A stretch of 64,000 bases of DNA from Flagellimonas eckloniae (lineage in GTDB: Bacteria; Bacteroidota; Bacteroidia; Flavobacteriales; Flavobacteriaceae): assembly GCF_001413955.1 (NCBI RefSeq), contig NZ_LCTZ01000002.1:2900501-2964500 (forward strand), given 5' to 3'. This document shows positions 2,997-57,278 of the stretch, one piece after another (positions within the stretch are counted from its first letter, which is position 1; every line of letters begins with the position of its first letter). The notes under the pieces were generated by a model. It was given only the letters and a program-made list of their open reading frames with translations, made no database searches and was not told the origin of the DNA. Both the position numbers and the translations under genes were made by a program.

Positions 2997-3027
2997 TATT
3001 GAGATTATGTTGTTTCAAAATTTTGAA

Positions 3028-13652: not shown

Positions 13653-13879
13653 AATATTTTTTGTGTAGATTTTCTTACATTGAAATTACCTGTATTTAAA
13701 GGGCCTTATCGATGAAAAACTACAGTTTTCCTCTTTTACATGCCACAAATATCTTCTTTCACAACAAAAAATTATACACGCTAGTACCTTAACTTATTTT
13801 AGCGTTTGATATTAGTGCTGCGTTTTACATACAACGTATAATCAATCACCTGATGACAATCAGTGTAGATGGAGTGGTT

Positions 13880-37546: not shown

Positions 37547-39805
37547 ATGAAGAAAACTAATTCGTATAATAGCATTCTTGTGATTGTATTTACAATTATG
37601 CTGCTTGGCGCCAACACTTTAACGGCACAAGTACTTAATCAACCTTTAGCGGCAGACAATCCAAATCTAGCAGGTAATTCTGCTTGGACGGCCGCATGTG
37701 CTTCTGATAGTTTCAATGAGTATTTCGTGGAATTTTCCTGGAACGCTCCTCTTGTGGACTCTTCCAATGAGTTTATCCTTGAACTTTCAGATTCCAATGG
37801 AAATTTTGGAGATCCCACCGAATTAAGTCGTGTTTCCAATGACAATATCGATTTTGAGGTACTGTTTCGATTTGAAGTTCCCAACACCGTTCGTGGTGAA
37901 AATTACAAGTTTAGAGTTCGTAGTACCAGTCCTGTAAAGACAAGTCCAGCTTCGGATGCTTATCCCATGCACTTTGTTGATTACAATTTACCCTTGTTGG
38001 TTAGTGAAGATGGAAGCGGAAGCATACCCCCAGGTGGAGAAATACAAATATGTGATGGGAATCCAGTAACATTGATGCCACACAACATTCCAAATGCAGA
38101 TACATATCGATATAACTGGTATAGAAGCGGTACACTTTTATCAGAAAAATCAGAAAGTCTTACCGTATCTACTGCTGGTATGTATTACGTTGAACTTGAT
38201 TACGGATCCGTATGCTCTGGTTCTGCAAACACACTTTCGAATACAATTGAAATTACCACAGGTAGTGGGTTGGGTGTAGCAATAAGTGGTTCTGATGATA
38301 TTGGGCTTTGCTCTCCAGACCCATACACCTTACAAGCAAATCTAAATGGATCAGGCCTAACCTATACTTGGTACAAGGACGGCAACATCGTTTCAGGTCC
38401 CACACTAGAGGGGCATACTTACGATATTGACACCACGATAGATGGTTTTGCGGGATCGTACGAAGTTGAGACTGATGGTCCAAGCGCTTGTTTAGAAAGA
38501 TCTTCTGCCGTTACGGTTAGGAATCTTGGAGACTTTGCTGTGACCAGGGAAAATGAGGAAAATATCGTTTTACTGCCATCCCAAAGCAAAACAATCTCTG
38601 TATCGTCTTCAGCGACCACTCCAACATATCAATGGTATAAAGACGGCACCCCGATTACAGATGCCACCAATAATATTTTGACTATTACAGAAACGGGCAT
38701 TTACTTCGCTAGGGTCACTGAAAATGGTGGTGGTTGCTCAGGCGCTCCAAGGGATTCAGAAACCACAACTGTTGTTTCTCCAGATTCTTTTGAGTTTGTT
38801 GTAGACTATGCAGGAGCATATACCTCTTGTCAAAATACCGATGTAACGCTTAGCCTTTCAACTATAAATGCCGTTGGAGGTGGAGCAAGAACAGATGTCA
38901 CATCTGACTTGCAATCAGCTTTTTCATACCAATGGGTAAACGAAGGAAGCAATATAAGTGGTGAAACATCCAAAACGATTACGATATCCAATTTTGAAAG
39001 CAACGGCACGTATAGACTTGACGGTAGCTTGGATAGTTTTACTGCAACTTCAAACGACCTACCTGTTAAACTTGTGGTGAACCAACCGTTGGAAATTAAC
39101 GCTAATGGTACTGTTCTGTGTGATGGTGGAGACCCGATTGTATTCAATAGCTCTGAAGGTCTGGATGATGAAACTTTTGAATGGTTAAAAGATGGTGTTG
39201 TCATCGATACCACGACTGAAAATATTACTGCAACAGAAATTGGTGTTTATCAACTAGTCATAAAGACACATGACTGTCCTGTTATATCCAATGAAATCAC
39301 AATTAGAGAATTTGATGAATCTCTTCTTGTGTTAGACGGATCTGAAGAAATTACAATTATTGAGGGTGAAACCGAAACCCTAACAGCGAGTGGCGCAGAC
39401 TCTTATGAATGGTTTGATACCAACAATACCCTTTTAGGCTCACAGAACTTTTACTCTTTTGAAGCAGAGGGAGAATATCTTTTAGTTGCTGATTTTGGCA
39501 ATTGTAGCATAAGCAAGATCATAACCGTCACTTACAGGGATACCTTTTCAATTCCAAATGTTATCACGGTTAATGGAGATGGCATAAATGATTTATGGGT
39601 TTTACCAAACACCTATTCAAGAAGCGAAGATGTTCTGGTAACAATTTATGATGAAAGGGGTAAAGAAATCTTTAGCCAAACCAATTATGAAAACAACTGG
39701 CCACAATCAACAACAGCCTTCAACAACCAAAATATGATTTTTTACTATACGGTTTCCAAAGGAGGTGAAAACCTAAAACAAGGAACCATAACAGTCATCA
39801 GATAA
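37547..39805 (+). CDS. sprC: T9SS type B cargo protein with Ig-like repeats (SprC-like)
   Basis: The 752-residue secreted protein has a signal peptide (SILVIVFTIMLLGANTLTAQ) and a fibronectin-like N-terminal domain (about 35-150). Five or six Ig-like repeats follow, marked by single cysteines and YxWYKDG (for example LTYTWYKDGNIVSG and PTYQWYKDGTPITD). The gliding-motility-associated C-terminal domain (about 665-752) contains IPNVITVNGDGINDLW and VTIYDERGKEIF, the type B signal for secretion by the T9SS. The next gene starts 5 nt after its stop. Position and architecture fit sprC of the Flavobacterium johnsoniae sprC-sprD-sprB-sprF operon; the symbol is assigned by order, not by alignment. 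Confidence 0.78.
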   Translation: MKKTNSYNSILVIVFTIMLLGANTLTAQVLNQPLAADNPNLAGNSAWTAACASDSFNEYFVEFSWNAPLVDSSNEFILELSDSNGNFGDPTELSRVSNDNIDFEVLFRFEVPNTVRGENYKFRVRSTSPVKTSPASDAYPMHFVDYNLPLLVSEDGSGSIPPGGEIQICDGNPVTLMPHNIPNADTYRYNWYRSGTLLSEKSESLTVSTAGMYYVELDYGSVCSGSANTLSNTIEITTGSGLGVAISGSDDIGLCSPDPYTLQANLNGSGLTYTWYKDGNIVSGPTLEGHTYDIDTTIDGFAGSYEVETDGPSACLERSSAVTVRNLGDFAVTRENEENIVLLPSQSKTISVSSSATTPTYQWYKDGTPITDATNNILTITETGIYFARVTENGGGCSGAPRDSETTTVVSPDSFEFVVDYAGAYTSCQNTDVTLSLSTINAVGGGARTDVTSDLQSAFSYQWVNEGSNISGETSKTITISNFESNGTYRLDGSLDSFTATSNDLPVKLVVNQPLEINANGTVLCDGGDPIVFNSSEGLDDETFEWLKDGVVIDTTTENITATEIGVYQLVIKTHDCPVISNEITIREFDESLLVLDGSEEITIIEGETETLTASGADSYEWFDTNNTLLGSQNFYSFEAEGEYLLVADFGNCSISKIITVTYRDTFSIPNVITVNGDGINDLWVLPNTYSRSEDVLVTIYDERGKEIFSQTNYENNWPQSTTAFNNQNMIFYYTVSKGGENLKQGTITVIR

Positions 39806-39810
39806 AAAGC

Positions 39811-41874
39811 ATGCACACGAACAAACCTCTATTCTTACTACTCTTTTTTATGCTTGCCTTTTCTGGGTTACGAAGCCAGGAAGATAATGCATTTGTAGTA
39901 TATGATGTTCCTTCCCAGAACCTTTTGAAATTCAATAGGTTCTTAATAAACCCAACTTTTTCAACGGTTAGGGAGGATAAATCATACATAAACCTATTTC
40001 ATAGAAACCAATCGGTATCTTTTAATGATAACAATCAGGTTTATTTCTTGAGTTATAGTGGTAGAATAGGGGACCGTAGCGGTGTAGGTGCAAGTCTATT
40101 TACAAATAGAGAAGGGCTTTTTAACAATTTTGGTATTCATACAAACTATGCGTATGGCATAAAACTTAGTTCCAAAAGCAATTTCACATTTGGTGCAAAT
40201 TTCTCATACTATCAAAGTGCATTCAATCAAAATAGAGCAAACGCTTTAGACAATGATCCGCTTTTAAACGGGTTGGAAAGTAGCTCTTTAATAACGTTTC
40301 AACCTGGGTTTAATATTTCCTATGGCAATTTTGATTTTGGTGCTTTTGCTGAAAATCTGTTTGATTATAATCTAAAAACCAGTGAGTCCGTTACCGAATT
40401 CAATGAAAAAACGTACTCTGGACACCTACAATATACCCATCAGTTTAAAAATGGTGCTGGATTGTTGGAACAAGCCAGGCTAATGCCTTTGGCCCGCGTA
40501 AGAAAGACTGGAGAGGAAAGTCTTACTCTAGGGGGAAACCTCCTTTTAGATTTGCCAAAACTAGGCTGGGTCCAAGCAGGATATGATGATTTTTATGGTG
40601 CTTCAGCCGGTCTAGGGTTTAACCTCAACAAAAATCTTTCTGTAGGATATACTGTTGAAAAAGGGTTGTCAAGCAGCTTTGAAAACTTTGGGGTTAGCCA
40701 TGAGATTTCCTTGGCATACTCGTTTACTCCCAACCTAACTGAAGATAGAGTTATGTTAGAGCAGGAGAATGAGGACCTCGCAGAGGCTGATGAGACCCCT
40801 CAAGAAAACCTAACGCTTTCAGAAAAAGACCTAAAAATTGCAGAACTGGAGACAAAATTGGCAGAAAACGATGCCATATTGGACGAACTGTTATTACGAC
40901 AAGATTCCATTGAAAATGCAAGAGAACGGGATTTAGAAAGACGGTTTGAAACTGTAATGAAAATGGTCAGACGGGAAACAAGAGGCGAAAAACCAGAACT
41001 TGAAGAAAAGGCCAAAGAAGTTTATTTCGCTAATATGGATAGCGCCGATGTGCTAACCAAAAAACCAATTCAACCATTGGCAAATCATGGCCTTTCCAAT
41101 ACAACGGCCTCCAAAAAGGTTATTCGTTTGAAAAACAAAACAAATGACCGTACCGTTGCCTCAAATAATAGAGTTGTAAAAAGCGATAAAACAAAACGAT
41201 ATTCTAGAAAAACAGTTGGTCGTTTCAAATCATTTAATATTCCAAATATTGAAAGTGGTCATTATTTGATTGCAAATGTTTTTAAAAACACTAAAAATGT
41301 AGATGATTTTGTACAACAATTGCAGGCGCAAGGTATTGACGCAGGTTATTTTGAAAACCCTAAGAACGGACTCAATTACGTCTATTTAAAAGGATATCAA
41401 AACAAAAGCGATGCCATTGACGCGTACCATTCCAAATTAAACGGAAATTATCAAGGAGATGCTTGGGTAATGAATGTTAATGGAGTTGATTCCTATAACA
41501 GTTTTGTTGCGGTGAAAAAAACAGCCAAATCAAAATATGGCAATACCGCCTTGAGCAAAAATATTGCTGAAAGCAAAAACAATCCTTCCCAAGTTTCGTA
41601 TTCCACCCATAAAATTAATGGTTTGGGCTCTGGTTTCTACATTATAGCAAACGTCTTTGAAAATGCAAAGAATGCAAATCGTTTCGTAAAAGAATTAAAT
41701 GCAAAAGGATTAAATGCAAGTTATTTTATTAATCCAGAGAACAATTACAGGTATGTGTACCTCAAAAAACACGAAACCTGGGGCAATGCCCTAACCTCAT
41801 ACTATTCCAAACTAAACGCCTCGTATGATGATCAAATGTGGATCATGCGAGTAAAACCAAATACCAACAGTTAA
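39811..41874 (+). CDS. sprD: PorP/SprF-like outer membrane protein with two SPOR-like C-terminal repeats (SprD-like)
   Basis: The 687-residue protein has a signal peptide (FLLLFFMLAFSGLRSQ). A PorP/SprF-type outer-membrane barrel (about 25-310) has FNRFLINPTFSTVRE, then GRSGVGASLFTNREG-like strands. A charged coiled coil (about 320-390) and a basic linker lead to two homologous repeats of about 75 residues. The repeats begin GHYLIANVFKNTKNVDDF (about 478) and GFYIIANVFENAKNANRF (about 610) and each continue to YVYLK and WxMxV, resembling SPOR domains that bind denuded glycan strands. It probably helps secrete or anchor the neighbouring type B cargo and ties the complex to the wall. The operon position matches sprD. 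Confidence 0.75.
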   Translation: MHTNKPLFLLLFFMLAFSGLRSQEDNAFVVYDVPSQNLLKFNRFLINPTFSTVREDKSYINLFHRNQSVSFNDNNQVYFLSYSGRIGDRSGVGASLFTNREGLFNNFGIHTNYAYGIKLSSKSNFTFGANFSYYQSAFNQNRANALDNDPLLNGLESSSLITFQPGFNISYGNFDFGAFAENLFDYNLKTSESVTEFNEKTYSGHLQYTHQFKNGAGLLEQARLMPLARVRKTGEESLTLGGNLLLDLPKLGWVQAGYDDFYGASAGLGFNLNKNLSVGYTVEKGLSSSFENFGVSHEISLAYSFTPNLTEDRVMLEQENEDLAEADETPQENLTLSEKDLKIAELETKLAENDAILDELLLRQDSIENARERDLERRFETVMKMVRRETRGEKPELEEKAKEVYFANMDSADVLTKKPIQPLANHGLSNTTASKKVIRLKNKTNDRTVASNNRVVKSDKTKRYSRKTVGRFKSFNIPNIESGHYLIANVFKNTKNVDDFVQQLQAQGIDAGYFENPKNGLNYVYLKGYQNKSDAIDAYHSKLNGNYQGDAWVMNVNGVDSYNSFVAVKKTAKSKYGNTALSKNIAESKNNPSQVSYSTHKINGLGSGFYIIANVFENAKNANRFVKELNAKGLNASYFINPENNYRYVYLKKHETWGNALTSYYSKLNASYDDQMWIMRVKPNTNS

Positions 41875-41875
41875 A

Positions 41876-44800
41876 ATGACCCGCAACTTTCTTAAAACAA
41901 TTCTATGCCTATTAGGCATATGGTTTCTTGGCCTTTATGGTCACGCACAAGAAGTGCCGTTTTCACCTCGACTTGATGATGGTGGAAACACATATCTTAA
42001 TATAAAGGGAGACTATACTTTCTTGTCCAATAGTGTGATGAACAGCGTTTCTGACGGACATGATGTCAACACTCCATATAACGGAAACGGAAGTAACAAT
42101 AGTCTTCATGTGGAATATGTGGATATTGACTCTGACCCCTCAACCTTTAATTCAAGTAGCTCCACACTTTCCGTCCCCGCTTGCTCCCAAATCTACTGGG
42201 CAGGACTATACTGGGCGGGAAACTATGACGTGGAACGCGACGGGGACCACCGTAGCAGATATGAAAGTGGTTATACAGATGATTCCAATCATTACGATGT
42301 AACCCAAGTAAAACTAAGAATTCCAGGAAGTACCACATATATAGACCTTCAAGCGGACACCGCGGCCGACCCTGTTGGTGAAGAAGATGATATTATTGTA
42401 AATGGATATAACACCCTTCCCAATGATCCTTATGTTTGCTATAAAAATGTAACGAACATTCTTCAAGGACTTGCAGACCCCAATGGGGATTATTTTGTTG
42501 GAAATGTTAGGGGAACAAGAGGAGCAACATCATATGGTTGCGCCGGATGGACCTTGGTCGTCATTTATGAAAACCCAACCCTTACAGGTAAATACATATC
42601 AGTTTTTGATGGATATGAGGGAATTACAACGCAATCTGGAAATCAAAGCGCAGATATTACAGTTTCAGGCTTTAATACAATTCCAACCGGTCCTGTAAAT
42701 GCCAGAATTGGTGTAAGTACGCTAGAAGGGGAAACTTCATTGGATGGTGACACTTTTGGTATTGTTTCAAATAGCAGCGCGTCCTTTACAGATATAACAA
42801 ACGCCGCGAACCCTGATGACAACTTCTTTAATTCAACAATTACAGATGATGGTGCCAATGTAACCTCACGAAACATAAACAGTACCAACGCAATTGGTTT
42901 TGATTCCGACGTATTTGATCTTAACAACCCAAGCAATAGTATTATCGATAATGATGATACCAGTGCCACGTTGAGATTGGGAACAGATGGTGATTGGTTC
43001 GCCTCATTTTTAGTCACTTTTGGCATAGAAATAATAGAACCTGACATTGTCCTAGAGAAAAAAGTGGAGGATATTGGAGGTAACGATATTACCGGACTAG
43101 GCGTTAATTTGGGACAACAATTAGATTATGTGCTCTCCTTTGTGAACACAGGAAATGACGACGCAACCAATTATACGATACGGGACATTCTTCCAATTAA
43201 TGTAACCTTGGATGAAACCACTTTGACACTTCCCGGTGTTGGTGATGGTGACCCCACGAATGATGTAACATATACGTACAATAGTACAACAAGAGAGGTT
43301 ATATTCTCCATTCCAGATAGCTATGTTGAAGAAGGAGATCCCATTTCCGAAATTCGGATGAGGGTACAAGTTGCGGAAAATTGCTTTGATTTTGTTGATG
43401 CCTGTACCGATATCATTGAGAACCTTGCTTACTCTACCTATGAGGGTGTAATAAATGACAACCAAATCAGTGATGACCCCAGTGTATCAGATTTTGATGA
43501 TTGTGGGTTTACCACTCCAGGTGCAACAAACTTTCTCTTAGATGACTTAACGGGTTGTAATTATACTAGAACCGTTCTTCTTTGTGGAGCTGACGTTACA
43601 TTAGATGCAGGTGATAATTTTGATAACTACGTTTGGTATAGAGATGAAAACGGCAATCAAGAAATTGATGGTGCCGATACTATTCTGACCGATGGTGATC
43701 CGGATGGAGACCCAAGCACATTTTTAGTGGATGAAGCAGCCACCTATATGGTTGACAAACAAGTTGCGGATCCATGTAAGGATTTTGCAGAGATAATCAT
43801 TGTTGAATTGTTTGGTGCCACGCAATCCAATCCCATTACGGCGTTAATAAATGACACAACAAATACGGTTGATGGTGAGATTGTTGTTTGTCCCAATGAT
43901 GGTAGTGAACTCCCACAAATCTTTTTATGTGGATTAAACGACACAGAGCTTGTGCAGATAAACATCCCTGATGCAGATAGTATTGAATGGGAACAATTGG
44001 ATGAAACCAGTTGTGCAGCAGCAACTGCCGATTGTGCAAACACAAACAACTCTTGTACTTGGAATAATGTTGGTGGCGGAAGTGATTTTCTTGCTTCTGA
44101 TGCTGGGCAATACCGTCTTGTAATAAACTATCAAAACGGATGTTTTAGTCGGTTCTATTTCAATATTTTCAAGAATCCGCTAGACCCACAATATACTTCT
44201 AGGGACCTTATCTGTAGTTCTGATGGTAATATTACAGTTACCAACATGCCCTTGGATTATGAATATCGTTTGATTGACCAAACTACTGGAAACGAATTAG
44301 TTGCCTATAATTCTAATCCAAGTTTTACCATTACCAGTAACGGCGCTTATACTGTTGAAATGAGACAGCAAGGTGTAGTTGATGGTTGTGTTTTTGTACT
44401 GGACAACATTGGTATATTGGATAGGGACTTTCAAGTTGATGTTGAAACAAAGGATACAGACTGTAATGGTTTGGGAGAAATTGAAATATCCATCCTCAAT
44501 GTAGAGGCTCAATATTATTATGAAATCTCTCAAGGAGGAACAATTGTAGACACTTTTGGGCCCTCTAATGATAATAATTACACTTTTGAAAATTTAAATG
44601 ATGGTGTTTATGATGTTTCCATTTCAACAGATGATGGATGTACTTACTCAGAACAAGTTACCATCAATGACGTTACGGATTTAGCTGTAACCGCCTTAAC
44701 GACCAAAAACATTGATTGTACAGATGGTATTGTCACTGTAACTGGCTCTGGAGGTTTTCCAAACCCAGATTACACCTATGCAATTTGGAGCTATAATGGA

Positions 44801-47800: not shown

Positions 47801-50800
47801 CCATCTGGAGTAATAATCGCTTCTGGAACCACTGGTCTAATTCCTGAAAATACAGGCCCAAACGATTGGCAAAACCTAACAATTCCAGCTCTTAACCCAG
47901 GAGCTAATACAACTATTGACATTGTTATTAGGACCATTGCAACTGGAACAAATGGTAATGATGTTGCTATAGATAATATTCAGGCTATTCAGATACCTGA
48001 AGTTTGTGCGGGCTCATTAACTGTGGATGTCAACATAGAAGATGGAAATGCATTTGATGCAGCCGTAACTGCTTTCTCCGATATTTCATGTAACACTGGA
48101 ACCGATGGTTCCATAACTTTTGAAGTAGAAAATTTTGATGTTAATTTCGAATATCAAGTAAATGGAGGTGGATACTCCGCCCTACAAACTACAAGTCCAA
48201 TAAACCTAACCGGATTATCTGCAGGGGATTACGATATAGATGTAAGGACAACAGACAACTTTGGAAATACGTGTACAACATCCTTTAGCCAAACACTAAC
48301 GGAACCAAATGCCGTAGTGGCTTCTGCTTCACTTACTAGCGTATTGACCTGTACTAACGGAGGCGCAACCATTACCGCCTCTGCGACCGGAGGAACCCCT
48401 GCTTATGAGTATCAATTGGAAGATGGAGTTGGTGGTATTATCACTGGTTTCGATTATGCAACCAATGGAAACAACACCGTTTTTACTGGATTGGCTGTTG
48501 GAGATTATATTGTTCGCGCCAGGGACACCAATCTCTGTGAGGACCCCATTGATACGGCCATTACCATTGCTGATTATATTGATGTAACTTTTACCTCAGC
48601 GCCAACTGCGTGTTACAGCGGAAACAATGATGGAACAATTCAAGTTGATGTTACAGCAGGTAATGGAGATTATCAGTTCAGTATAGATGGTGGGCCATGG
48701 ACAATACCAAATACCAGCACGACACGACACATATTTGACAATCTAACACCTGGCACCTATACCATAGATGTACTTGATGGTTTTGGTTGTACTGGAATCC
48801 AGCAAAATATTACCATTAACCCCCAGCTCACAGCAAGTGCTGCATTGACTAACGATCTTACCTGTTTGGTAGATGCTTCGGTAACCATTACAGCAGGTGG
48901 CGGTTCCGGAAGCTACTCGTATGAATGGTCTAACGATGGGGGAACGAATTACTTCAACACCAATTTTACCGGTTCCCAATTTTCAACAACCACGGCTGGA
49001 ACATATCAATTTAGGGTGACGGATACCACAGCTCCAACAGCTTGTACCGTTGTTACCAATGTAATTATTGTTACACCCGTTGCAACCCCAATAATTACTT
49101 CGGTAACCCCAACACACGTTATTTGTAACGGGGACAGTAATGGTTCGTTGGATGTAGTGATTGATACTTCGGTTGGGCTTGCTCCCTACACTATTGAGGT
49201 GGTTGAAATCAATGGCCCAACAAATTACGGTACACAAACCTCAGGTTTACCAGCCGGAGACTACGAGGTTACAATTACTGACGACAAGGGGTGTGTTTCT
49301 GCGCCTACTTCGGTTAGTATCACCGAGCCAAACGTAATGAATTACACTGTAACAAGTGTTCCTATAACCTGTGACACTTCTGGAATGACAACTAGCCCAG
49401 GTTCAATTGCGGTTAGCGGCATAACTGGGGGTACTGCAGAATACACCTATTATCTAACGGCCAACAATGGAATTTCACCTCAAACCTATACCACGACTTC
49501 AGGTGCAAGAGACCATACTTTTACAATTCTAACTTTTGGTATTTATCAAGTCGATGTGGTTGATGCCAACGGATGTTCTGCATTTAGCACAGAGGTCATT
49601 GCTTCTCCTCCAAATGATTTGGATATAGATGTGAGTACTTTGACTTCTGACTGTACTACAGGTGGTACCGCTATCGTGACCGTAGGAGCCTCTGTTGGAA
49701 GCGGAAACTATGAATTTGCTATATTAGAAACCTTTACCCCGCCATATTCTTCTAGCTATGTGTCTCCTGATACTCCTGGGGGCAGCGTTGCAACCTTTAC
49801 CGGACTAACACCTGGAATATCTTTTACATTTGTTGTTTTTGATATAACTACGAATTGTTATTATTTTGAAACTGCAGCGGCCCCAATAAACACACCATCT
49901 AACATGACGGCTACATTGGACGAAGTTGCCAACGTGACCTGTACTGGTTCGGCCGATGGAAACATCTCCTTTACGTTTGACAATTATGATGCTGGTGCAA
50001 CTGATGTAACTTATGAAATCTTTAATTCCCAATCCAATTTAACTACCGGGCATTCTGGCACAACCTCTGTAAACCCTCCAACTGGAGCTATTGCAATAAC
50101 CGATTTTGCAACACTGGCCCCTGGGGAATATTATCTCTTGCTTACTGAAGTAGGCGGGCCATTTAATGGTTGCTCCGTATTAGGAGGAGAATTCACTATT
50201 CGTGAATCCGTGAATGCATTAAGTGTAACCGCTACAGCAACCAATGATATAGATTGTGGTGCGGATACCGGGACCATTACTGCAATTGCCCAATTTGGCA
50301 CAGGACCATATGAATATCAATTGGAACTACAGACGGCAACTCCTCCAACAGCAGCTACATGGATTGGCGTAAATACGACCGGATTCTTCAGTGGGCTTGC
50401 CAATGATGACTACACCGTTTACGTAAGGGATGCCTACGGCTGTATTATAGATTTTGATATTACCGTTGGTTTGGACGCAAGGCCTGAAATTGCTATAGCT
50501 GTAGTTGATCAATGTGTTGCCGAAGGGACGTTTGAAGTCTTGGTTACCCTAAGTTCAAGTGCGCCAGGAATTGCTCCCTATCAAATAAGAGTTAATGGAG
50601 GTGCTTACCAAAACATTACATTTAACGGAAGTAATCAATATACTGTTACCGGATTAAGTTCGGGGCTTAACCAAAGTATCGCCGTTCGCGATGTTACTGG
50701 ATGTCCAGACACGGATACTTTCAATATTCAGCCTCCGTTGCAATTTAATGCTACCCTTACAACTTTGTTGGATTGTGAAACAGCGCCCAACGACAATGCG

Positions 50801-53800
50801 GAAATTACTATCGATGTGACTGCTGGTTCGGGCACTTACGATTACGAAATAGATGGCCCTGGTGCCGTTGACCAAACAAGAACTGCAATGGGAGGAACTT
50901 CCCTAACCTGGTCTGATGCTAGCCTAGCTGGTTCTTACACGGTTACAGTTTATGATACTTCAACATCAGTTCCTAATTGTTTAGGTTCAATAATTGTTGA
51001 TGTTCCTGCAGCCGTGACTCCATCATTTAGTGTTACCTCATTTACTGATGTTACCTGTAACGGTGATGACAATGGAACGATCTCGGTTGCTGCCGTTGAT
51101 CTTGGCACAGGCCCCTATTCTTTTGAAATAATCTCTGGCCCTGGAAGCACGGCAACTTTTCCAATACTTCCAACAAGTAATAATAACACGACTTCAACTT
51201 TCACAGGATTGGAGGGAACTGCAGTAGGAATAACCTATACCGTAGAAGTAACTGCGGCTGATGGCCAGTGTACAACAACACAAACACAAGTGATAACACA
51301 GCCTGATGGGATTACAAATATTGATGCAACTGTGGTTGAATTCGGTTGTGCCGTTGGAAACAACGTGAACAACGCTTCAATAACCATTAATGATGCCTCA
51401 ACAGCATTGCCAATTGGTCCTATTTCCGGTGGAAGCGGCACCTATGTTATCTATGAGTTTATTGAAGAGGATGACCCCAATACAGTACCTGTCGAAGCGC
51501 CTGCTATCGTTCAGTCCGGGCCAAATCAGACCTTTATAGAAACTGATATTGCTGGAGGAGTTTATACCATCAATGTTTATGACGACAATGGTTGTGTTGG
51601 CACTACAACAGCAACAATAAATCCTTTTGATGAGTTGCTAAGTGCTAGTGCAGTAATCGATGTTGCAGCAACATGCGTTTCAGGTGAAGACATTACCATT
51701 ACAGCAATAGGCTCCCTTACAACTTCTTTAACAACACCTGCCAACTATGAGTTTAGGTTGTTGCCAAGTGGAGGTTTTCAGGCTTCAGGCAGCTTTACAG
51801 GATTGCCCATTGGAATAAACAATTTTGAGGTAAGAAATACTGTTACCGGATGTATCATAGCAATTTCCCATGACGTTGCTGATCCAGAAGTACTGGATTT
51901 AATAGTAGTCAATACCACGGACATCACCTGTTTTGGTGACACCAATGGAACAGTAGAATTGGATTTACAAGATGCAACGAGCACTACCTATGCAAGCGCA
52001 ACCAATTACACACTTTATTATGATGTAAATGGAACGCCTACCAATTTATTGGATGATGTAACCTCAACTGGAACAGATGCTGATGGTAGTTTTACCATTA
52101 CAGGGCTAGCTGCAGGAACATACTATGTTGAAGTGGAAGATACCAATCCTCCAGGTTCAGCGTGTACCTACGCACAATCTTTCAATATAGCCGGACCCAG
52201 CGTTGGAATATCCGCGTCCACCCAAGTTACACCCGTTACTTGTGTTAATGATGGTAGTATAGAAATTATTAATCCTGCTGGTGGATGGGGCGGCTATACC
52301 TACTTTGTAGATTTAGCTTCAAGCCTTGCACCAAGAAGCTACCAAGCTTCTCCTTTGTTTACTGGTTTAGCGGGAGGCGCTAGCCCTGGAACTGATTATC
52401 AAGTTTGGGTGGCAGACCAAAATGGGTGTGAATTCCAGTTGCCCAATGAGACCTTGGTTGATCCAACAGCTATTACAGCAACACTTCAAATCAACCAAGA
52501 TAATTGTACCGCACTTCAGGGAGAAATTGAAGTGACTGGAACTATAGGGGGTCAAGGTTCAAACTACACCTACCAACTTATCCGAAACGGAAGCAACATA
52601 GGGTCTCCACAAACAAATCCTGTATTCTCAGGATTGGGTGCTGGTTCTTATGAAGTTTTGATTGCTGATCAGTGGTCTTGTGACGAAAGGGTTGGGCCCG
52701 TAGTCTTACTGGATGAAATGGTTGCAACTGCCACAGTTGTTAAACCTATTGATTGCTCTGGTAACCCTGGTGGACAAATTACAATCACTGTAAATGGTGG
52801 TTCGTCTAACCTATCTTATGATGTGCTTTTTCCTGACGGAGTAACCACACAGAATAACGCAACGGGAATCTTTACTTCATTGACTGATCCAGGAACATAT
52901 TCCTTTACTGTAACTGACAATGGTACAGCTACCTCATGTATGGTAAACATCACGCAAGACTTAGATGGTGCTGTTGATCCTGACATTACCAACGTAATCA
53001 TGGTTCCTGTAAGTTGTAATGGTGGTTCGGACGGAAGTCTAACGGTGGAATTGGATCCGGCTTCAGCAGTTAATCCTGTTTATACTTATGAACTTTATGA
53101 GGCTTCAGACCTTGTTACACCCTACAGATTTGCACAAACCAGTGCAACATTTGATAACCTTCCTCAAGGTGGTTATCGAGTTCGTGTAATTTCCGCAAGA
53201 GCTTGTGAGGATTTCCATGATGAAACCGTTACGGAACCTACTGCTCTTATTGTTTCAGCTACTGCAACACCATTCGCGTGCAACGCAAGCAATACGGTTA
53301 ACACATCAACTATTACTGCAAGCGCTTCAGGAGGAACAGGCCCTTACTTGTATAGTATTGATAATACAAATTTCCAGACGTCCAATACTTTTGATGTAAT
53401 TGATAATGGTGCGGTTCAGAATATAACCGTTTATATAACTGATGCCAATTCCTGTTCAGAAACAGCAACAGTAGCACCTATTGAACCTATCAATGTGTTT
53501 ACTGCAAACGTAACCCTGAACAATGGAGGAATAAGTTGTGCAGGCCCAGAAGAAGTGTTGATTACCGTTACTGATAATGGAAACCTGGCAAACACCTATA
53601 CTTACGAGTTGTTGCCTGTTGGAAACCCATTAGGAACCGAAATACCTACGCTTTCTAATGTTACAACAACCTTTAATCTGACTGAACCTGGAAGTTATAC
53701 CTTCAGAATTACAGATAATACTACCGGTTGTTATCTTGATACCGCTCCATATGAGATTATGCCTTATGATCTCATCGAAGTTGTTGCAACACCAACAGCT

Positions 53801-56308
53801 CCTGCTATCTGTTTTGGTGATACCAACGGCGCGCTGGAAATTAATGTAACTGGATATACCGGAACATATGATTATGAAGTGTTCAATGCTGATGGAACTA
53901 CCGCTGGATTAACTGGAAGTGGAAACACTAGTACTAATCCATTGACAATCTCTGGACTTGGTGGCGGAAACTATTTTGTAAGAGTAATCGAAACTTCAAA
54001 TCCATTGTGTATTGAAGATTCGAATACCATAACCATTGTATCACCGGACATGGCATTAACAGCAACACCTGTTGAAGTTGCCAATGTTACCTGTACCAAC
54101 GATTTAGGGGAAATTGAAGTGTCGCCTACTGGTGGGTTTGCACCATATGACATACAATTGACCAACACTACAACTACCCAAGTGTACAATGTAACTGATG
54201 TGGTGAGTTTTGTATTCTCCAATCTTTCTGCAGGACTTTTTGATGTCCAGATTACAGATGACAATGGATGTATTATCAACGAGCCCATTACATTGGTTGA
54301 GCCTACTCCAATTACTGCTGATATTGATGCAACTCCAACAAACCTTGTTTGTTATGGAGATACAAATGCAACCGTAACAGCAATAAATGTCTTGAATGGA
54401 GAAGGAGTTTATCAATATGTATTGAACATATACGACCCAACCGGTACCACAATTACATTTAGTTCCGGTGCACAATCTAGTCCTGTTTTCAATAATCTTG
54501 GCGCAGGAGTCTATAGTGTTACCGTTTCTGATGGATGGAGCTGTGGTATGGAAACAACTCAGGTTACCATTTCCGAACCGGTAGAGGTAATGGCCAATCT
54601 AATTCAGTTAACACAGCTTACCTGTACCGCTCAAGCTCAAATAGAGCTTTCCGCCACAGGAGGAACTGGTCCATATGAATTTAGTGTAGATGGAAGCCCT
54701 GGCTCATATACCGCAATGACCGGGGGAACAATCCATACATTCACTGTGCCAGCAGGTCCTTACCAGTATTATGTTCGCGATGCCTTTGGTTGTGATGCCA
54801 TGATATCCAACCAGGTAACTGTTGACCCAATAGTTCCGTTAGATGTAATAATTGATGATAGTGCAGCTCTTATCAATTGTACCGGAGAAGCTTCTGCCAC
54901 TATAATCGCAAATGCTTTTGGAGGCCTAGGAAACTATTCGTACGAGTTATTTACGGATGCAGGATTGACCAATTCCGTAGCCGGACCTCAAACTACAGGA
55001 GAATTCAATGCACTTATTGCCGGAAGCTACTACGTACATGTTACCAGTATGGATTGTGAGGCCACAAGTACCGAAATTACTATTGTGGATCCTATTCCAT
55101 TACAAATAGATAGACAAGAATCTACAGATGTAACCTGTGCAGGGTTGGACGATGGTACAATTACTGTTGAGGTTTCTGGTGGAACTGGGGAGATTCTTTA
55201 CGCCATTACACCAAACCTGAATCAGTTTGACAGCGTAAATACCTTTGAAGACCTTTCTCCTGGAATATATGATGTCATTGCCCAGGATAGAAACGGTTGT
55301 TTTGAAACATTCCAGTTTGAGATTTTGCAACCGGAGCCGCTTCAAATTCAGGCTATAAATATTATGCATGAGGTGTGTTTCAATAGTGAAGATGGTTCTT
55401 TTGAGCTTGATATTGTTGGCGGTACTGCCCCTTATTCATCAAGTCTTAACTCTAACTTGGATACAGACTTTGTTCCAGATCAAGTATTGTTCCAGAACCT
55501 ACCAGCAGGAACCCATGTTGTATTTGTTAGAGATGCCCAAGGTTGTGATACCAATCTTATTGTTGAGATAAATCCTGGTGTAAATCTAGCAGCTACGGTT
55601 ACTCCAATATATGTGTGTTCTGGAATAGTTCCAGACAACTCATTGGAAATTGTATTTGATGATCCCTCTGTTTCAACAAATGTTCTATATGCAATAGATT
55701 CAACCGACCCTGTTGATATGCAGTTAAACGCAGATTTTACAAACATGGCTGCAGGAGATCATTACCTCACAATAGCGCATTCCAATGGATGTATCAACAC
55801 CATAGATTTCAGCATTACTGGATTTGAACCTCTTGAGTTGGTTTTGGAAAACAGTAATATCAATGAAATTACAGCTACCGCTACAGGTGGTCTAGAAGAT
55901 TATACTTTCTATTTTGGTGATATTGACAATGGAACGGACAATACTTTTATCATAAATAGAACTGATACCTACCCAGTAACCGTTATTGATCAGAACGGTT
56001 GTGAAGTTACTTTGGAAATCTTTATGGAATTCATAGATATTGAAACTCCCAACTTCTTCACTCCTGATGGAGATGGTCTAAACGATACCTGGTTGCCAGA
56101 CAATTTAGAGGCCTTCCCTAACGTACTAATGATCATTTTTGATCGTTATGGTAGAGAGCTCTATCGCATGAGATACGGTGATATTGGTTGGAACGGTATT
56201 TACAACAATAGTGAGCTGCCAACCGGTGATTATTGGTACATCATAAAACTACAGGGTGAGAACGATGACCGTGAGTTTGTTGGACATTTCACCTTATATA
56301 GACAATGA
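41876..56308 (+). CDS. sprB: Giant SprB-like surface adhesin, T9SS type B cargo
   Basis: A 4,810-residue protein from one uninterrupted 14.4-kb frame. The signal peptide (ILCLLGIWFLGLYGHAQ) is followed by an N-terminal beta-rich domain (about 30-385, with SQIYWAGLYWAGN and GWTLVVIYE) and a DUF11-like domain (about 386-503, PDIVLEKKVEDIGGND). About 42 SprB-type repeats of 75-110 residues extend from about 850 to 4718; each has an early Cys, a GGxxPYxYS(I/F)DG strand, a GTYT or GxYxVxVxD turn and a GC near its end. An unrelated domain of about 200 residues interrupts them (about 1838-2042). The type B C-terminal domain (about 4721-4810) has TPNFFTPDGDGLNDTW. In F. johnsoniae SprB is moved along the surface by the gliding motor. 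Low-similarity repeats argue against assembly collapse. Confidence 0.88.
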   Translation: MTRNFLKTILCLLGIWFLGLYGHAQEVPFSPRLDDGGNTYLNIKGDYTFLSNSVMNSVSDGHDVNTPYNGNGSNNSLHVEYVDIDSDPSTFNSSSSTLSVPACSQIYWAGLYWAGNYDVERDGDHRSRYESGYTDDSNHYDVTQVKLRIPGSTTYIDLQADTAADPVGEEDDIIVNGYNTLPNDPYVCYKNVTNILQGLADPNGDYFVGNVRGTRGATSYGCAGWTLVVIYENPTLTGKYISVFDGYEGITTQSGNQSADITVSGFNTIPTGPVNARIGVSTLEGETSLDGDTFGIVSNSSASFTDITNAANPDDNFFNSTITDDGANVTSRNINSTNAIGFDSDVFDLNNPSNSIIDNDDTSATLRLGTDGDWFASFLVTFGIEIIEPDIVLEKKVEDIGGNDITGLGVNLGQQLDYVLSFVNTGNDDATNYTIRDILPINVTLDETTLTLPGVGDGDPTNDVTYTYNSTTREVIFSIPDSYVEEGDPISEIRMRVQVAENCFDFVDACTDIIENLAYSTYEGVINDNQISDDPSVSDFDDCGFTTPGATNFLLDDLTGCNYTRTVLLCGADVTLDAGDNFDNYVWYRDENGNQEIDGADTILTDGDPDGDPSTFLVDEAATYMVDKQVADPCKDFAEIIIVELFGATQSNPITALINDTTNTVDGEIVVCPNDGSELPQIFLCGLNDTELVQINIPDADSIEWEQLDETSCAAATADCANTNNSCTWNNVGGGSDFLASDAGQYRLVINYQNGCFSRFYFNIFKNPLDPQYTSRDLICSSDGNITVTNMPLDYEYRLIDQTTGNELVAYNSNPSFTITSNGAYTVEMRQQGVVDGCVFVLDNIGILDRDFQVDVETKDTDCNGLGEIEISILNVEAQYYYEISQGGTIVDTFGPSNDNNYTFENLNDGVYDVSISTDDGCTYSEQVTINDVTDLAVTALTTKNIDCTDGIVTVTGSGGFPNPDYTYAIWSYNGVDLYTDVGDIPGGAYQVVNDFTFTNGEEGDYEFIVVDGNNCSFVSNSVSIVVAPSVEYTTSLTDETCFGIADGTFAVNVTNSNGYTLSYTLTYPDASTAANTSGSFTGLPQGNYSLAITQTQGSVSCDFTETFTIGGQASGISGDAVLIQDYTCLQDGIIEAQNVAGGTAPYEYSIDGINFSSAVGAETFSNLTNGTYTITIRDANNCTFATNSITLDPLNPPSDLTFVATTPNCPSLTSDVTVTVVDGNTPFVFEITAPLPIAATSITGASADFDGLAPGTYTFQVTDDKGCVYSESFTINPVSEINVTGQLVSNISCLTDTDGEVTFTVADFNTDFNYSVTGPSNFSGTNETNGTIPLTGLDDGTYTIVVTDNLTYCTATTDVTVNAPAAALTIGAAETQPTCIVDGSVTLTSTGGWGGNTFTLTNPDASTFGTNSTGTFNTLTQTGTYTASVTDVNGCIVTTTFDLDPAIAPVLAIVPNNTCFDDAVGLTLTANVTSGGDGNFEYSLNGGAFGTNNVFTGLTSGTYTIDVRDGKNCTDSESITINPELSVVASAPNITACATTTDVDITAAGGDGNYVYAIVSDGVTPVSGDFATTNPITVSSDGDYDVYVRDNSGNAGYCEASYDITIVQDTALSISVSDSGIQCSGEAQATITITATGGEAPYQFSIDNGANYQPSNTFVNQLAGSYNIRVRDANNCDVTDIYTITEPLTLSASAAVTQLAECNPGLGAEVRVTNAIGGTAPYEYSFDGGTNYSTNPIGFLLPGTHTVYLRDANNCTFPMTVTIDPEPTPPGIVTAVAYECDGEGVVTITPDSADFDYTYELDGTPNTPATSNIFSDIATGSHTITVNYTSNIAPTPSVLLLEDFGTGPNTSIPQIDGDYYCYDPQNGSTTPCSPLDGRTTNSGNSRINDLEYSVTSNIVSPFGAWTSPNDASLTPNGRYLAVNVGDPGVNTIVYFKEDIEVIPNRDVEFSLAVFNLVDQGRNLIEPNILVELVDPSGVIIASGTTGLIPENTGPNDWQNLTIPALNPGANTTIDIVIRTIATGTNGNDVAIDNIQAIQIPEVCAGSLTVDVNIEDGNAFDAAVTAFSDISCNTGTDGSITFEVENFDVNFEYQVNGGGYSALQTTSPINLTGLSAGDYDIDVRTTDNFGNTCTTSFSQTLTEPNAVVASASLTSVLTCTNGGATITASATGGTPAYEYQLEDGVGGIITGFDYATNGNNTVFTGLAVGDYIVRARDTNLCEDPIDTAITIADYIDVTFTSAPTACYSGNNDGTIQVDVTAGNGDYQFSIDGGPWTIPNTSTTRHIFDNLTPGTYTIDVLDGFGCTGIQQNITINPQLTASAALTNDLTCLVDASVTITAGGGSGSYSYEWSNDGGTNYFNTNFTGSQFSTTTAGTYQFRVTDTTAPTACTVVTNVIIVTPVATPIITSVTPTHVICNGDSNGSLDVVIDTSVGLAPYTIEVVEINGPTNYGTQTSGLPAGDYEVTITDDKGCVSAPTSVSITEPNVMNYTVTSVPITCDTSGMTTSPGSIAVSGITGGTAEYTYYLTANNGISPQTYTTTSGARDHTFTILTFGIYQVDVVDANGCSAFSTEVIASPPNDLDIDVSTLTSDCTTGGTAIVTVGASVGSGNYEFAILETFTPPYSSSYVSPDTPGGSVATFTGLTPGISFTFVVFDITTNCYYFETAAAPINTPSNMTATLDEVANVTCTGSADGNISFTFDNYDAGATDVTYEIFNSQSNLTTGHSGTTSVNPPTGAIAITDFATLAPGEYYLLLTEVGGPFNGCSVLGGEFTIRESVNALSVTATATNDIDCGADTGTITAIAQFGTGPYEYQLELQTATPPTAATWIGVNTTGFFSGLANDDYTVYVRDAYGCIIDFDITVGLDARPEIAIAVVDQCVAEGTFEVLVTLSSSAPGIAPYQIRVNGGAYQNITFNGSNQYTVTGLSSGLNQSIAVRDVTGCPDTDTFNIQPPLQFNATLTTLLDCETAPNDNAEITIDVTAGSGTYDYEIDGPGAVDQTRTAMGGTSLTWSDASLAGSYTVTVYDTSTSVPNCLGSIIVDVPAAVTPSFSVTSFTDVTCNGDDNGTISVAAVDLGTGPYSFEIISGPGSTATFPILPTSNNNTTSTFTGLEGTAVGITYTVEVTAADGQCTTTQTQVITQPDGITNIDATVVEFGCAVGNNVNNASITINDASTALPIGPISGGSGTYVIYEFIEEDDPNTVPVEAPAIVQSGPNQTFIETDIAGGVYTINVYDDNGCVGTTTATINPFDELLSASAVIDVAATCVSGEDITITAIGSLTTSLTTPANYEFRLLPSGGFQASGSFTGLPIGINNFEVRNTVTGCIIAISHDVADPEVLDLIVVNTTDITCFGDTNGTVELDLQDATSTTYASATNYTLYYDVNGTPTNLLDDVTSTGTDADGSFTITGLAAGTYYVEVEDTNPPGSACTYAQSFNIAGPSVGISASTQVTPVTCVNDGSIEIINPAGGWGGYTYFVDLASSLAPRSYQASPLFTGLAGGASPGTDYQVWVADQNGCEFQLPNETLVDPTAITATLQINQDNCTALQGEIEVTGTIGGQGSNYTYQLIRNGSNIGSPQTNPVFSGLGAGSYEVLIADQWSCDERVGPVVLLDEMVATATVVKPIDCSGNPGGQITITVNGGSSNLSYDVLFPDGVTTQNNATGIFTSLTDPGTYSFTVTDNGTATSCMVNITQDLDGAVDPDITNVIMVPVSCNGGSDGSLTVELDPASAVNPVYTYELYEASDLVTPYRFAQTSATFDNLPQGGYRVRVISARACEDFHDETVTEPTALIVSATATPFACNASNTVNTSTITASASGGTGPYLYSIDNTNFQTSNTFDVIDNGAVQNITVYITDANSCSETATVAPIEPINVFTANVTLNNGGISCAGPEEVLITVTDNGNLANTYTYELLPVGNPLGTEIPTLSNVTTTFNLTEPGSYTFRITDNTTGCYLDTAPYEIMPYDLIEVVATPTAPAICFGDTNGALEINVTGYTGTYDYEVFNADGTTAGLTGSGNTSTNPLTISGLGGGNYFVRVIETSNPLCIEDSNTITIVSPDMALTATPVEVANVTCTNDLGEIEVSPTGGFAPYDIQLTNTTTTQVYNVTDVVSFVFSNLSAGLFDVQITDDNGCIINEPITLVEPTPITADIDATPTNLVCYGDTNATVTAINVLNGEGVYQYVLNIYDPTGTTITFSSGAQSSPVFNNLGAGVYSVTVSDGWSCGMETTQVTISEPVEVMANLIQLTQLTCTAQAQIELSATGGTGPYEFSVDGSPGSYTAMTGGTIHTFTVPAGPYQYYVRDAFGCDAMISNQVTVDPIVPLDVIIDDSAALINCTGEASATIIANAFGGLGNYSYELFTDAGLTNSVAGPQTTGEFNALIAGSYYVHVTSMDCEATSTEITIVDPIPLQIDRQESTDVTCAGLDDGTITVEVSGGTGEILYAITPNLNQFDSVNTFEDLSPGIYDVIAQDRNGCFETFQFEILQPEPLQIQAINIMHEVCFNSEDGSFELDIVGGTAPYSSSLNSNLDTDFVPDQVLFQNLPAGTHVVFVRDAQGCDTNLIVEINPGVNLAATVTPIYVCSGIVPDNSLEIVFDDPSVSTNVLYAIDSTDPVDMQLNADFTNMAAGDHYLTIAHSNGCINTIDFSITGFEPLELVLENSNINEITATATGGLEDYTFYFGDIDNGTDNTFIINRTDTYPVTVIDQNGCEVTLEIFMEFIDIETPNFFTPDGDGLNDTWLPDNLEAFPNVLMIIFDRYGRELYRMRYGDIGWNGIYNNSELPTGDYWYIIKLQGENDDREFVGHFTLYRQ

Positions 56309-56324
56309 TAGCTTAACCTACAAC

Positions 56325-57278
56325 ATGATGTTAAAAAAACTATATTCCTCATTTATCATATTTGCGCTAACCGTGGGTGTTGGAGCTCAGGAATTAACCA
56401 TTCCACAGCTATCCCAGTATATAGCGGACAATCCTTTTTTAATGTCTCCAACCTATGCTGGTATTGGGGATCATATAAAAGTTCGTTTGAACGGACTTAC
56501 ACAATGGGTAGGTATTGAGGATGCACCAGATACCCAAACCGTGGCGGCCGATGCCAGAATAGGAAATAGATCCGGTGTTGGAATGCTCATGTACAATGAC
56601 AGCAATGGAGAAACCAAACAAAGGGGTGCGCGAATTTCTTTTGCGCATCATCTTACACTAAATAGGTATGATGATGTTTTTCTCTCTTTTGGTATTTCAT
56701 ACAATTTTAATCAGTTCAGAATTGATGTTGAAAATTTCACAGATAACAATGGTCAGCTTCCAACAGATGACAAATCCACAACTAACCACAATTTTGATTT
56801 AGGTTTTTTATATCGATACAATAAATTCTATATCACGTTAAATGCTTCTAATATTTTAAACAAGGATTTAACTCAATTTAATCCTGTTTTTGAGCCAAAT
56901 ACGTTGAGAAATTATTATGCCTATGCGGGTTATAGTATATCTAAAAGCAAAAACAGTAAATTGGAAATAGAACCCTCTGTATTTTTCCAGTGGTTTGAAA
57001 GTGATGGCCGTTCTGTTACCGATTTAAATGCAAAATTCCGTTTTCATAATTTTGAGGATTATTATTATGTTGGTCTTACCTATCGTTTTTTAAATGACCA
57101 AGTAGGAAAACCGCTTTACATAGCGCCCATTGCAGGTCTTAAAAAGAGTAATTTTTATTTTGGATATTCTTATCAGGTAATTACCAATGAAATTCTAGGA
57201 TATAGTTCTGGAACTCATGTTCTTACAATAGGAATGGACCTCTTTCAGGGTATTAGCAATTGTCGGTGCATGTATTAA
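56325..57278 (+). CDS. sprF: PorP/SprF family T9SS membrane protein (SprF-like)
   Basis: The 317-residue protein has a signal peptide (LYSSFIIFALTVGVGAQ), then the family start LTIPQLSQYIADNPFLMSPTYAGIGDH and barrel strands including RIGNRSGVGMLMYNDSNG and NFDLGFLYRYNKFYITLN, ending near GTHVLTIGMDLF. PorP/SprF proteins work with the T9SS to deliver type B cargo; SprF is needed for SprB to reach the surface in F. johnsoniae. The frame stays open upstream to 56256, overlapping the adhesin gene, but the ATG at 56325 (or 56328), 16 nt after the adhesin stop, gives the signal peptide. It ends the operon. Confidence 0.88.
   Translation: MMLKKLYSSFIIFALTVGVGAQELTIPQLSQYIADNPFLMSPTYAGIGDHIKVRLNGLTQWVGIEDAPDTQTVAADARIGNRSGVGMLMYNDSNGETKQRGARISFAHHLTLNRYDDVFLSFGISYNFNQFRIDVENFTDNNGQLPTDDKSTTNHNFDLGFLYRYNKFYITLNASNILNKDLTQFNPVFEPNTLRNYYAYAGYSISKSKNSKLEIEPSVFFQWFESDGRSVTDLNAKFRFHNFEDYYYVGLTYRFLNDQVGKPLYIAPIAGLKKSNFYFGYSYQVITNEILGYSSGTHVLTIGMDLFQGISNCRCMY

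What the first reader, a model, noticed from the sequence alone, without database searches (positions are those of the whole stretch)
37547..57278. A complete sprC-sprD-sprB-sprF-type gliding adhesin operon of 19.7 kb
Four plus-strand genes with gaps of 5, 1 and 16 nt encode a type B CTD Ig-repeat protein, a PorP/SprF-like protein, a giant SprB-repeat adhesin and a second PorP/SprF-like protein. The order matches the F. johnsoniae operon needed for gliding. No T9SS core genes are in the window, so the secretion machinery must be elsewhere. The operon implies that the organism can display a mobile surface adhesin.
Basis: partly seen in the sequence, partly recalled or inferred. Interest (0 to 1): 0.85.

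Follow-up and report, generated by a model that had tools for sequence, protein, structure and literature searches.

The report
Gliding adhesin operon with swappable block
This is a genuine four-gene operon for the giant surface fibre that gliding marine bacteria drag along their cells; the operon itself is a known kind, but the middle of the fibre comes in two sharply different versions that have been swapped many times between related species.

Summary
In detail: four plus-strand genes at 37547-57278, gaps 5, 1 and 16 nt, encoding a type B CTD protein (SprC), a PorP/SprF barrel (SprD), a 4810-aa SprB-repeat adhesin and SprF. The order is conserved across the family. SprF ends in the Cys-x-Cys that, in F. 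johnsoniae, disulfide-links SprF to the track protein GldK. sprA, gldK, gldJ and porV lie elsewhere in this Allomuricauda/Flagellimonas genome; its second sprB-sprF-like pair is a paralogue.
Three additions were not found in the papers searched. (1) SprB residues ~2316-3054 are a two-type block: 29 of 75 scored named relatives carry the window's type, 38 another (~29% identical), 8 are unclear; an N-terminal tree needs 14 switches, and the window's closest sibling has the other type. (2) SprD carries two SPOR-like domains and no cysteine. (3) Among 99 PorP/SprF carriers from 15 genera, a PorE-like gene follows 1 of 27 CxC-tailed but 38 of 44 PRF[FY]-tailed carriers.
Two species described as non-gliding carry sprC, sprD and the start of sprB, so the operon does not prove gliding.

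The parts
37547..39805 (+). sprC: 752 aa, Ig-like domains plus type B CTD; likely cargo of SprD
   Evidence: 27-33% identical (full-length matches) to the ~480-aa SprC of distant genera
39811..41874 (+). sprD: 687 aa, PorP/SprF barrel, long helix, two SPOR-like domains, no cysteine
41254..41457 (+). SPOR domain 1 of SprD (residues 482-549)
   Evidence: Pfam PF05036 1.5e-10; strand-helix-strand-strand-helix-strand in the AlphaFold model
41629..41853 (+). SPOR-like domain 2 of SprD (residues ~607-681)
   Evidence: same order of secondary structure as domain 1 in the model; aligned with domain 1; not called separately by Pfam
41876..56308 (+). sprB: 4810-aa gliding-adhesin homologue with SprB repeats and type B CTD
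48821..51037 (+). two-type exchangeable block of SprB repeats (residues ~2316-3054)
   Evidence: DNA homology gap to sibling L012; typing; breakpoints; tree; PF13573 repeats
47485..47908 (+). smaller variable stretch of SprB (residues ~1871-2011)
   Evidence: second DNA homology gap to L012
56039..56302 (+). type B CTD of SprB
   Evidence: TIGR04131 87.9 bits, residues 4722-4809
56325..57278 (+). sprF: 317-aa PorP/SprF carrier of SprB
57261..57269 (+). Cys-Arg-Cys motif in the SprF C-tail (residues 313-315)
   Evidence: translation; CxC in 40 of 40 3'-complete SprF from other genera; function in F. johnsoniae from PMC12635249
57320..57682 (+). folB (dihydroneopterin aldolase), 41 nt after sprF; possible fifth gene of the transcript
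   Evidence: folB match in 29 of the 30 SprF loci L138-L167

Best explanation
The locus is the orthologue of the F. johnsoniae sprC-sprD-sprB-sprF gliding operon. SprB leaves the cell through the T9SS translocon SprA, is taken over by its dedicated outer-membrane carrier SprF by means of the type B CTD, and stays bound to it. The two cysteines of the SprF tail form a disulfide with the conserved cysteine of GldK on the moving track, so the fibre is pulled along the cell. SprC is the cargo of the SprD barrel; SprD has no cysteine and instead carries a long helix and two SPOR-like domains in the periplasm, which probably contact peptidoglycan or the track without a covalent bond. SprB is modular: a block of SprB repeats (residues ~2316-3054) exists as two alternative types exchanged by recombination inside the gene, most likely changing what the fibre binds or what recognises it. 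Shown here: gene content, order, conserved motifs, machinery genes in the genome, the two block types and their switching. Inferred from F. johnsoniae work: export, disulfide link, movement. Inferred only: SprC-SprD pairing in this organism, roles of the SPOR-like domains and of the block.
For: Domains. Synteny: 77 of 80 named loci with sprC-sprD-sprB start and 29 of 40 regions from other genera with all four genes. SprF CxC 40 of 40; SprF in the CxC clade of a tree built without the tails. GldK with cysteines at 18, 279, 335, matching the lipobox and, in spacing, F. johnsoniae Cys285/Cys343 (PMC12635249). sprA 2902 bits, gldK 608 bits, gldJ 881 bits, porV. A published F. johnsoniae sprD primer (1296, PMC9870892) aligns with 4-5 mismatches exactly to the last 33 bp of sprD in L194, L177, L185 and L190; two other placements with 5 mismatches were elsewhere. 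SprD without Cys after residue 25 in 79 of 80. Block: 29 window-type, 38 other type, 8 unclear of 75 scored loci; 14 switches forced; similar 5' boundary in six of seven pairs aligned.
Against: No transcript or motility data. Two species described as non-gliding keep sprC, sprD and the start of sprB (their sprF was not seen). F. johnsoniae itself was not in hand, so reciprocal best matches were not tested. The three upstream F. johnsoniae operon genes (recalled) are absent. One region from another genus has sprB-sprF without sprD before it (L191) and one MAG has sprC-sprD-sprF without sprB (L061). sprE, sprT, porG, gldA, gldB, gldD, gldF-I were not searched for.
Confidence: 0.85

Rival explanations
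1. The operon is intact, but the organism does not glide: SprB serves as a fixed or slowly moving adhesin for attachment or biofilm, as the non-gliding descriptions in the genus suggest.
For: M. okinawensis 81s02 (L066) and M. yonaguniensis 334s03 (L051) are described as non-gliding (PMC10301316 passages) and carry sprC, sprD and an open sprB start.
Against: The CxC tail, which in F. johnsoniae is not needed for export but is needed for movement (PMC12635249), is kept in 40 of 40 SprF from other genera. Absence of gliding in one test is a weak negative (general knowledge). The C-terminus of SprF was not seen in L051 and L066.
Confidence: 0.25
2. The window pair is a paralogous PorP/SprF-cargo pair and the true sprB-sprF is the other pair in the genome (C2:2447152-2458308, 3399 aa plus 314 aa, CxC tail).
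For: The second pair exists, with a similar CTD ending and a CxC tail.
Against: Only the window pair sits with sprC and sprD; the tree joins window SprF with the operon SprF of G066 (100/97) and puts the second copy outside them (98/85). The second SprB has one SprB-repeat hit in the genome search.
Confidence: 0.03
3. The two SprB block types are not exchanged alleles but old paralogues sorted by loss, or an assembly effect.
For: Tandem sprB genes occur in two of the 40 regions from other genera (L186, L207); most loci are draft contigs.
Against: Sequence on both sides of the block is orthologous in the window/L012 pair (92% and 88% DNA identity), so exchange happened inside one gene; five sister pairs on supported branches differ in type and the 5' boundary agrees in six of the seven pairs aligned; 0 of 43 SprB ORFs in more distant genera have the L012 type, 34 the window type, 9 unclear.
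Confidence: 0.12

Closest known systems
F. johnsoniae sprC-sprD-sprB-sprF operon (Rhodes et al. 2011, content recalled, paper not held; title seen in the reference lists of PMC12635249 and PMC9870892)
   Same: gene order, type B CTD cargo, PorP/SprF carriers, twin-cysteine SprF, T9SS and Gld genes elsewhere in the genome
   Different: three recalled upstream operon genes absent; folB downstream; SprB 4810 aa against about 6500 recalled; SprC 752 aa, as in some nearer genera (748-771), against about 480 in distant ones
Type B CTD / PorP-SprF cargo-carrier pairs (PMC12618676: discussion and passages; PMC9143113: passages)
   Same: cargo next to its carrier; in F. johnsoniae the moving pairs lack a PorE neighbour and a static one has it
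   Different: the parts I read do not sort carriers by C-tail; here CxC, PRF[FY] and SPOR tails mark three groups on a tree
Allelic exchange of adhesin domains in P. gingivalis surface proteins (PMC5266723, search listing with start of abstract only)
   Same: surface protein of a Bacteroidota diversified by exchange of internal modules
   Different: here one block of SprB repeats with two types shared by several genera, in a gliding adhesin

Membership tests
sprCDBF gliding operon | order C-D-B-F on one strand with short gaps | tested here: met
sprCDBF gliding operon | SprB: giant SprB-repeat protein with type B CTD | tested here: met
sprCDBF gliding operon | SprF: PorP/SprF barrel with C-tail Cys-x-Cys | tested here: met
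sprCDBF gliding operon | partner cysteine in GldK and T9SS/track genes in the genome | tested here: met
   GldK Cys279/335, gldK, sprA, gldJ, porV; gldL, gldM, gldN by position only; sprE, sprT, porG and the other gld genes not searched
sprCDBF gliding operon | reciprocal best match to F. johnsoniae SprC, SprD, SprB, SprF | not tested
   no F. johnsoniae sequence was identified; only a published sprD primer could be placed
sprCDBF gliding operon | three further genes upstream in the F. johnsoniae operon (recalled) | tested here: not met
   the upstream neighbour is a divergent tRNA synthetase gene; the feature is recalled and not held as defining
sprCDBF gliding operon | co-transcription and requirement for gliding | not testable with these tools
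   no RNA or phenotype data
static PorE-linked type B adhesin | PorE-like gene next to the carrier, PRF[FY] tail | tested here: not met
   folB follows sprF; the tail is CxC
SPOR-domain protein | SPOR domain by curated model | tested here: met
   PF05036 41.7 bits against a cut-off of 21; second domain by model topology only

The most novel reading that the evidence does not exclude
The SprB block at residues ~2316-3054 is a specificity cassette of the gliding fibre: two alternative types, one old and family-wide, the other seen here only in the Allomuricauda-Maribacter-Croceitalea group, circulate by recombination between species and genera and are kept in balance by selection, for example by phages or by surface glycans, so that sister strains glide on, or are recognised by, different things.
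Probability: 0.4. Interest if true: 0.72.

Novelty: new variant of a known kind. Interest (0 to 1): 0.5.

Why it matters
SprB is the main moving fibre of Bacteroidota gliding, and what it binds is poorly known (general knowledge). A sharply bounded block with two natural versions gives a ready pair of alleles to test what the fibre recognises. The tail classes of PorP/SprF carriers turn two 2025 results (the SprF-GldK disulfide; mobile against static type B adhesins) into a prediction readable from sequence: which surface proteins of a genome ride on the track. The SPOR-like domains of SprD suggest a peptidoglycan or track contact for the SprC-SprD pair, whose role is unclear.

Tried and rejected
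F. johnsoniae orthologues: the named genome scan kept 80 of 98 loci, none titled Flavobacterium; unnamed handles could not be matched to F. johnsoniae; I placed only published primers. Of the four primers, only 1296 fell at its expected place; the other three had at best 5-8 mismatches.

Strict co-loss of CxC with the operon failed. I compared orphan-type carriers (no cargo gene beside them in this genome). In 28 genomes with SprF and SprD matches, 26 have such a carrier and all 26 have CxC (the other two gave only SprF as best hit). In 23 genomes put together as lacking the operon, 20 have such a carrier and 12 of them keep CxC, 8 do not. Of these 23, 20 have no SprF match at 1e-60; G019, G027 and G095 have weak SprF matches (40-48%), and G027 also an SprD match, so the grouping is imperfect. 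The Fisher value is 5e-4, not corrected for relatedness. GldJ as a marker of gliding: present in 24 of 24 genomes, with or without the operon, so useless for this.

Species identity: genome size 4.13 Mb and window G+C 37.8% equal those printed for Flagellimonas (Muricauda) eckloniae (PMC6767994 passages), but the 20 stretches of the genome that I took average 39.2%, so identity is open. Flagellin N-domain: no hit in the genome.

Solved structures: no PDB sequence match at 1e-3 for SprD, SprF or SprB; for SprC only weak matches to Ig-type proteins, best E 0.008. The SprD model (pLDDT 57) matches generic beta-barrels, among them a chain of the T9SS complex 8gl6; no SPOR entry is among the 50 rows shown.

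Tail set: 99 carriers = 9 of the 10 of this genome (the window's SprD was not in the set) and 90 of the 95 strong hits; 5 were dropped because another carrier of the same genome had the same last 150 residues, and 4 weak hits (E about 1e-4) were not fetched. Downstream sequence was under 1.5 kb for 5 rows; for three of them a longer stretch of the same place shows no OmpA gene, one holds the start of folB, and one SPOR row (L236) stays open. The carriers are related, so the Fisher value of 1e-12 is descriptive only: the tree shows few label changes. Against the rule: 6 of 44 PRF[FY] carriers have no PorE-like gene next (four of them, L208, L228, L238, L247, are one related group), and one CxC carrier has one (L275). 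Three CxC tails lie inside the PRF[FY] clade; 2 of 3 lack the PorE-like gene.

Block comparisons: L075, L034, L074, L087 and L088 were left out for short segments and L058 for a short N-terminal match.
Full report
What is there. SprC (752 aa) has Ig-like domains and a type B CTD; SprD (687 aa) is a PorP/SprF barrel with a SPOR domain; SprB (4810 aa) has SprB repeats and a type B CTD; SprF (317 aa from the ATG at 56325) is a PorP/SprF protein. The upstream neighbour is a divergent tRNA synthetase gene of the Gln/Glu type; folB follows 41 nt after sprF, then tRNA-Cys.

Where it comes from. Named relatives place the window in Allomuricauda/Flagellimonas (best hit 99% in SprD). The genome has 4,132,279 bases in two contigs.

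Is it the sprCDBF operon? Of 80 named loci kept from 98 relatives, 73 show sprC-sprD-sprB (start), 4 the same with two sprB frames, 2 end after sprD and 1 (L061) has sprC-sprD-sprF without sprB. Flanks of 10 kb mean that sprF is normally out of reach there. In 40 regions chosen from SprF hits in other genera, 29 hold C-D-B-F in order (one with a split sprC, one with a split sprD); of the other 11, 7 are cut by a contig end, 1 by the end of the stretch, 2 have tandem sprB genes and 1 (L191) has no sprD before sprB. Median gaps were 1, 74 and 32.5 nt over 28 of these. In the family sample of 396 genomes, 244 have a match to SprD at 1e-30; in that of 189 genomes, 115 have a match to SprF at 1e-60.

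The link to the track. Liu et al. 2025 (PMC12635249; abstract, introduction, one results section and passages seen) show that the CxC in the F. johnsoniae SprF tail forms a disulfide with GldK Cys343 and is needed for movement but not for export. The window SprF ends NCRCMY. All 40 SprF sequences with a complete 3' end, from 39 of the 40 regions, have CxC in the last 40 residues. The genome's GldK has cysteines at 18, 279 and 335. Three genes that fit gldL, gldM and gldN by position and size follow gldK (inferred); sprA is at C2:2138252, gldJ at C2:3661836, and porV close to gldJ.

The second pair. The genome holds 10 PorP/SprF proteins plus PorV as a weak hit. One other pair resembles SprB-SprF: 3399 aa plus 314 aa with tail NCTCTY at C2:2447152-2458308. 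The OmpA gene before it has DUF5723 and TSP3 domains, not PorE architecture. On a tree of 99 barrels with tails removed, window SprF pairs with the operon SprF of G066 and the second copy falls outside. A third SprB-repeat protein (2775 aa, C2:~167.6-175.9 kb) has no adjacent carrier but ends in GHFTLYR like SprB.

Tail classes. From 15 genomes of 15 genera I sorted 99 carriers: 27 CxC, 44 PRF[FY], 20 SPOR fusions, 8 other (what was left out is told in Tried and rejected). A PorE-like OmpA gene is the next gene downstream in 1 of 27, 38 of 44, 0 of 20 and 0 of 8; five rows had little downstream sequence, four of which are settled by other loci. Cargo with a HFTLxR-type end sits before CxC carriers in 16 cases, before 'other' carriers in 2 and before PRF[FY] carriers in none. 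These classes rest on my own patterns and on HMMs seeded with this genome. Pfam confirms OmpA in three of the neighbour genes in this genome, with further PorE domains (PD40, carboxypeptidase-like) in two. The tree gives three groups: SPOR; a CxC group (24 CxC plus 4 other); a PRF[FY] group (44 plus 4 other plus 3 CxC). The SPOR group as one side of a branch has weak support (53/46) because of one long-branch row. The 4 'other' rows of the CxC group come from G095, G002 and G011, none of which is among the SprD matches (for G095 read from its absence from the list of matches). PMC12618676 (discussion read; passages) reports that SprB, Fjoh_4750 and, in few cells, orphan-type cargo move in F. 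johnsoniae, while PorE-linked Fjoh_3952 is static. Put together, CxC carriers should be track-coupled and PRF[FY] carriers static; this is inference, and I could not look at the F. johnsoniae tails. Orphan-type carriers have CxC in 26 of 26 cases where the operon is present and in 12 of 20 where it is absent or weak.

SprD. No cysteine in the window protein and none after residue 25 in 79 of 80 named loci. The AlphaFold model (27 sequences, mean pLDDT 57, so low) has a barrel at 67-303, a long helix at 336-390 and two strand-helix-strand-strand-helix-strand units at 483-556 and 608-681, of better confidence than the linkers. Pfam names only the first. A standalone SprD-like gene lies at C2:367934-369700; its SPOR-like part is seen by alignment and is not named by Pfam. 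SprC moves on the track in F. johnsoniae (PMC12635249 citing a thesis), so if SprD is its carrier there as here, SprD must couple without a disulfide of its own; the SPOR-like tail is then the obvious candidate. No paper in the library holds 'sprD' with 'SPOR domain' and 'gliding', nor 'PorP' with 'SPOR domain' and 'type IX secretion'.

The two-type block in SprB. Against this sibling (SprC 97.7%, SprD 99.1%; SprF 100%), window SprB is 91-100% identical over residues 1-1800, falls to 31-36% at about 2391-2933, and returns to 89-94% after 3083; the last 493 residues are 98.6% identical. DNA homology stops at window 48820 and resumes at 51038, with a smaller gap at 47485-47908. Typing by best match to the window block or the L012 block: 75 of 80 named loci scored, 29 window type (46-70% to the window block, 28-31% to the other), 38 L012 type (44-100%, against 27-31%), 8 unclear; 5 loci had no scorable SprB. 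Both types occur in loci titled Allomuricauda/Flagellimonas/Muricauda, Maribacter and Croceitalea. On a quick tree of residues 1-1700 (66 named loci, L058 left out, plus the window) the label needs 14 changes, all 14 forced by well-supported branches; shuffled labels need 22. Five sister pairs differ in type (window/L012, L018/L024, L056/L036, L033/L022, L026/L028). Aligning seven pairs (the five and L031/L068, L035/L049), identity drops at about residue 2280-2370 in six; L033/L022 is uninformative because L022 is a fragment. It recovers at about 2960-3080 in four and, after a patchy stretch, at about 3170-3220 in two. In 43 SprB ORFs from the more distant genera, 34 are window type, 0 L012 type, 9 unclear, so the window type looks ancestral. 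Block identity follows N-terminal identity poorly for the window type (Spearman 0.35, 406 pairs) but well for the L012 type (0.78, 528 pairs); two halves of the N-terminus give 0.79 (2211 pairs). So switching between types is well supported, while within the L012 type inheritance looks mostly vertical. The window block is 67.8% identical to that of a Maribacter whose N-terminus is 54% identical, but only 59-61% to L018 and L084, whose N-termini are about 82% identical. Both types are made of SprB repeats. Two literature searches listed no paper on SprB allele exchange; that covers only the open-licence library and those terms.

How it probably works. See Best explanation. Shown: genes, motifs, machinery, block types. 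By homology to F. johnsoniae: export, carrier binding, disulfide, movement. Inferred: function of the SPOR-like tail and of the block.

Limits. No expression or motility data; two species described as non-gliding carry the start of the operon; F. johnsoniae proteins not compared; several gld/spr genes not searched for.

Noticed in passing
G000:C2:2890578-2891774 (L104:578-1774) and window 685-1959: A second purD-like (GARS) frame with the same C-terminus but a different N-terminus lies about 10.6 kb upstream of the window's purD, with what look like glycan genes between (by eye); perhaps an insertion with a duplicated target gene.
   Followed up: no
window 13853-15937 (+): Orphan PorE-architecture protein (PD40, carboxypeptidase-like, OmpA), below both NCBIfam cut-offs for PorE and CHU_0125.
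   Followed up: partly
L061: A Croceivirga MAG has sprC-sprD-sprF with no sprB between them; deletion or misassembly.
   Followed up: no
L191: A region of another genus has sprB-sprF with no sprD or sprC in the 8.9 kb before sprB.
   Followed up: partly
L186, L207: Tandem sprB genes, in L207 with two sprF genes, in other genera.
   Followed up: partly
G000:C2:367934-369700 (L101:7934-9700): Standalone SprD-like barrel of 588 aa with one SPOR-like domain by alignment and no cargo gene beside it; second SprD-like matches occur in many genomes.
   Followed up: partly
window 57320-57682: folB is found beside sprF in 29 of the 30 SprF loci L138-L167; reason unknown.
   Followed up: partly
window 27059-30493 (-): 1144-aa protein with only a weak DUF4175 match (25.4 bits, cut-off 27.3).
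   Followed up: no
G115 and G172 carriers (L272, L275, L290): CxC tails that seem to have arisen anew inside the PRF[FY] clade; two of the three lack the PorE-like neighbour.
   Followed up: partly
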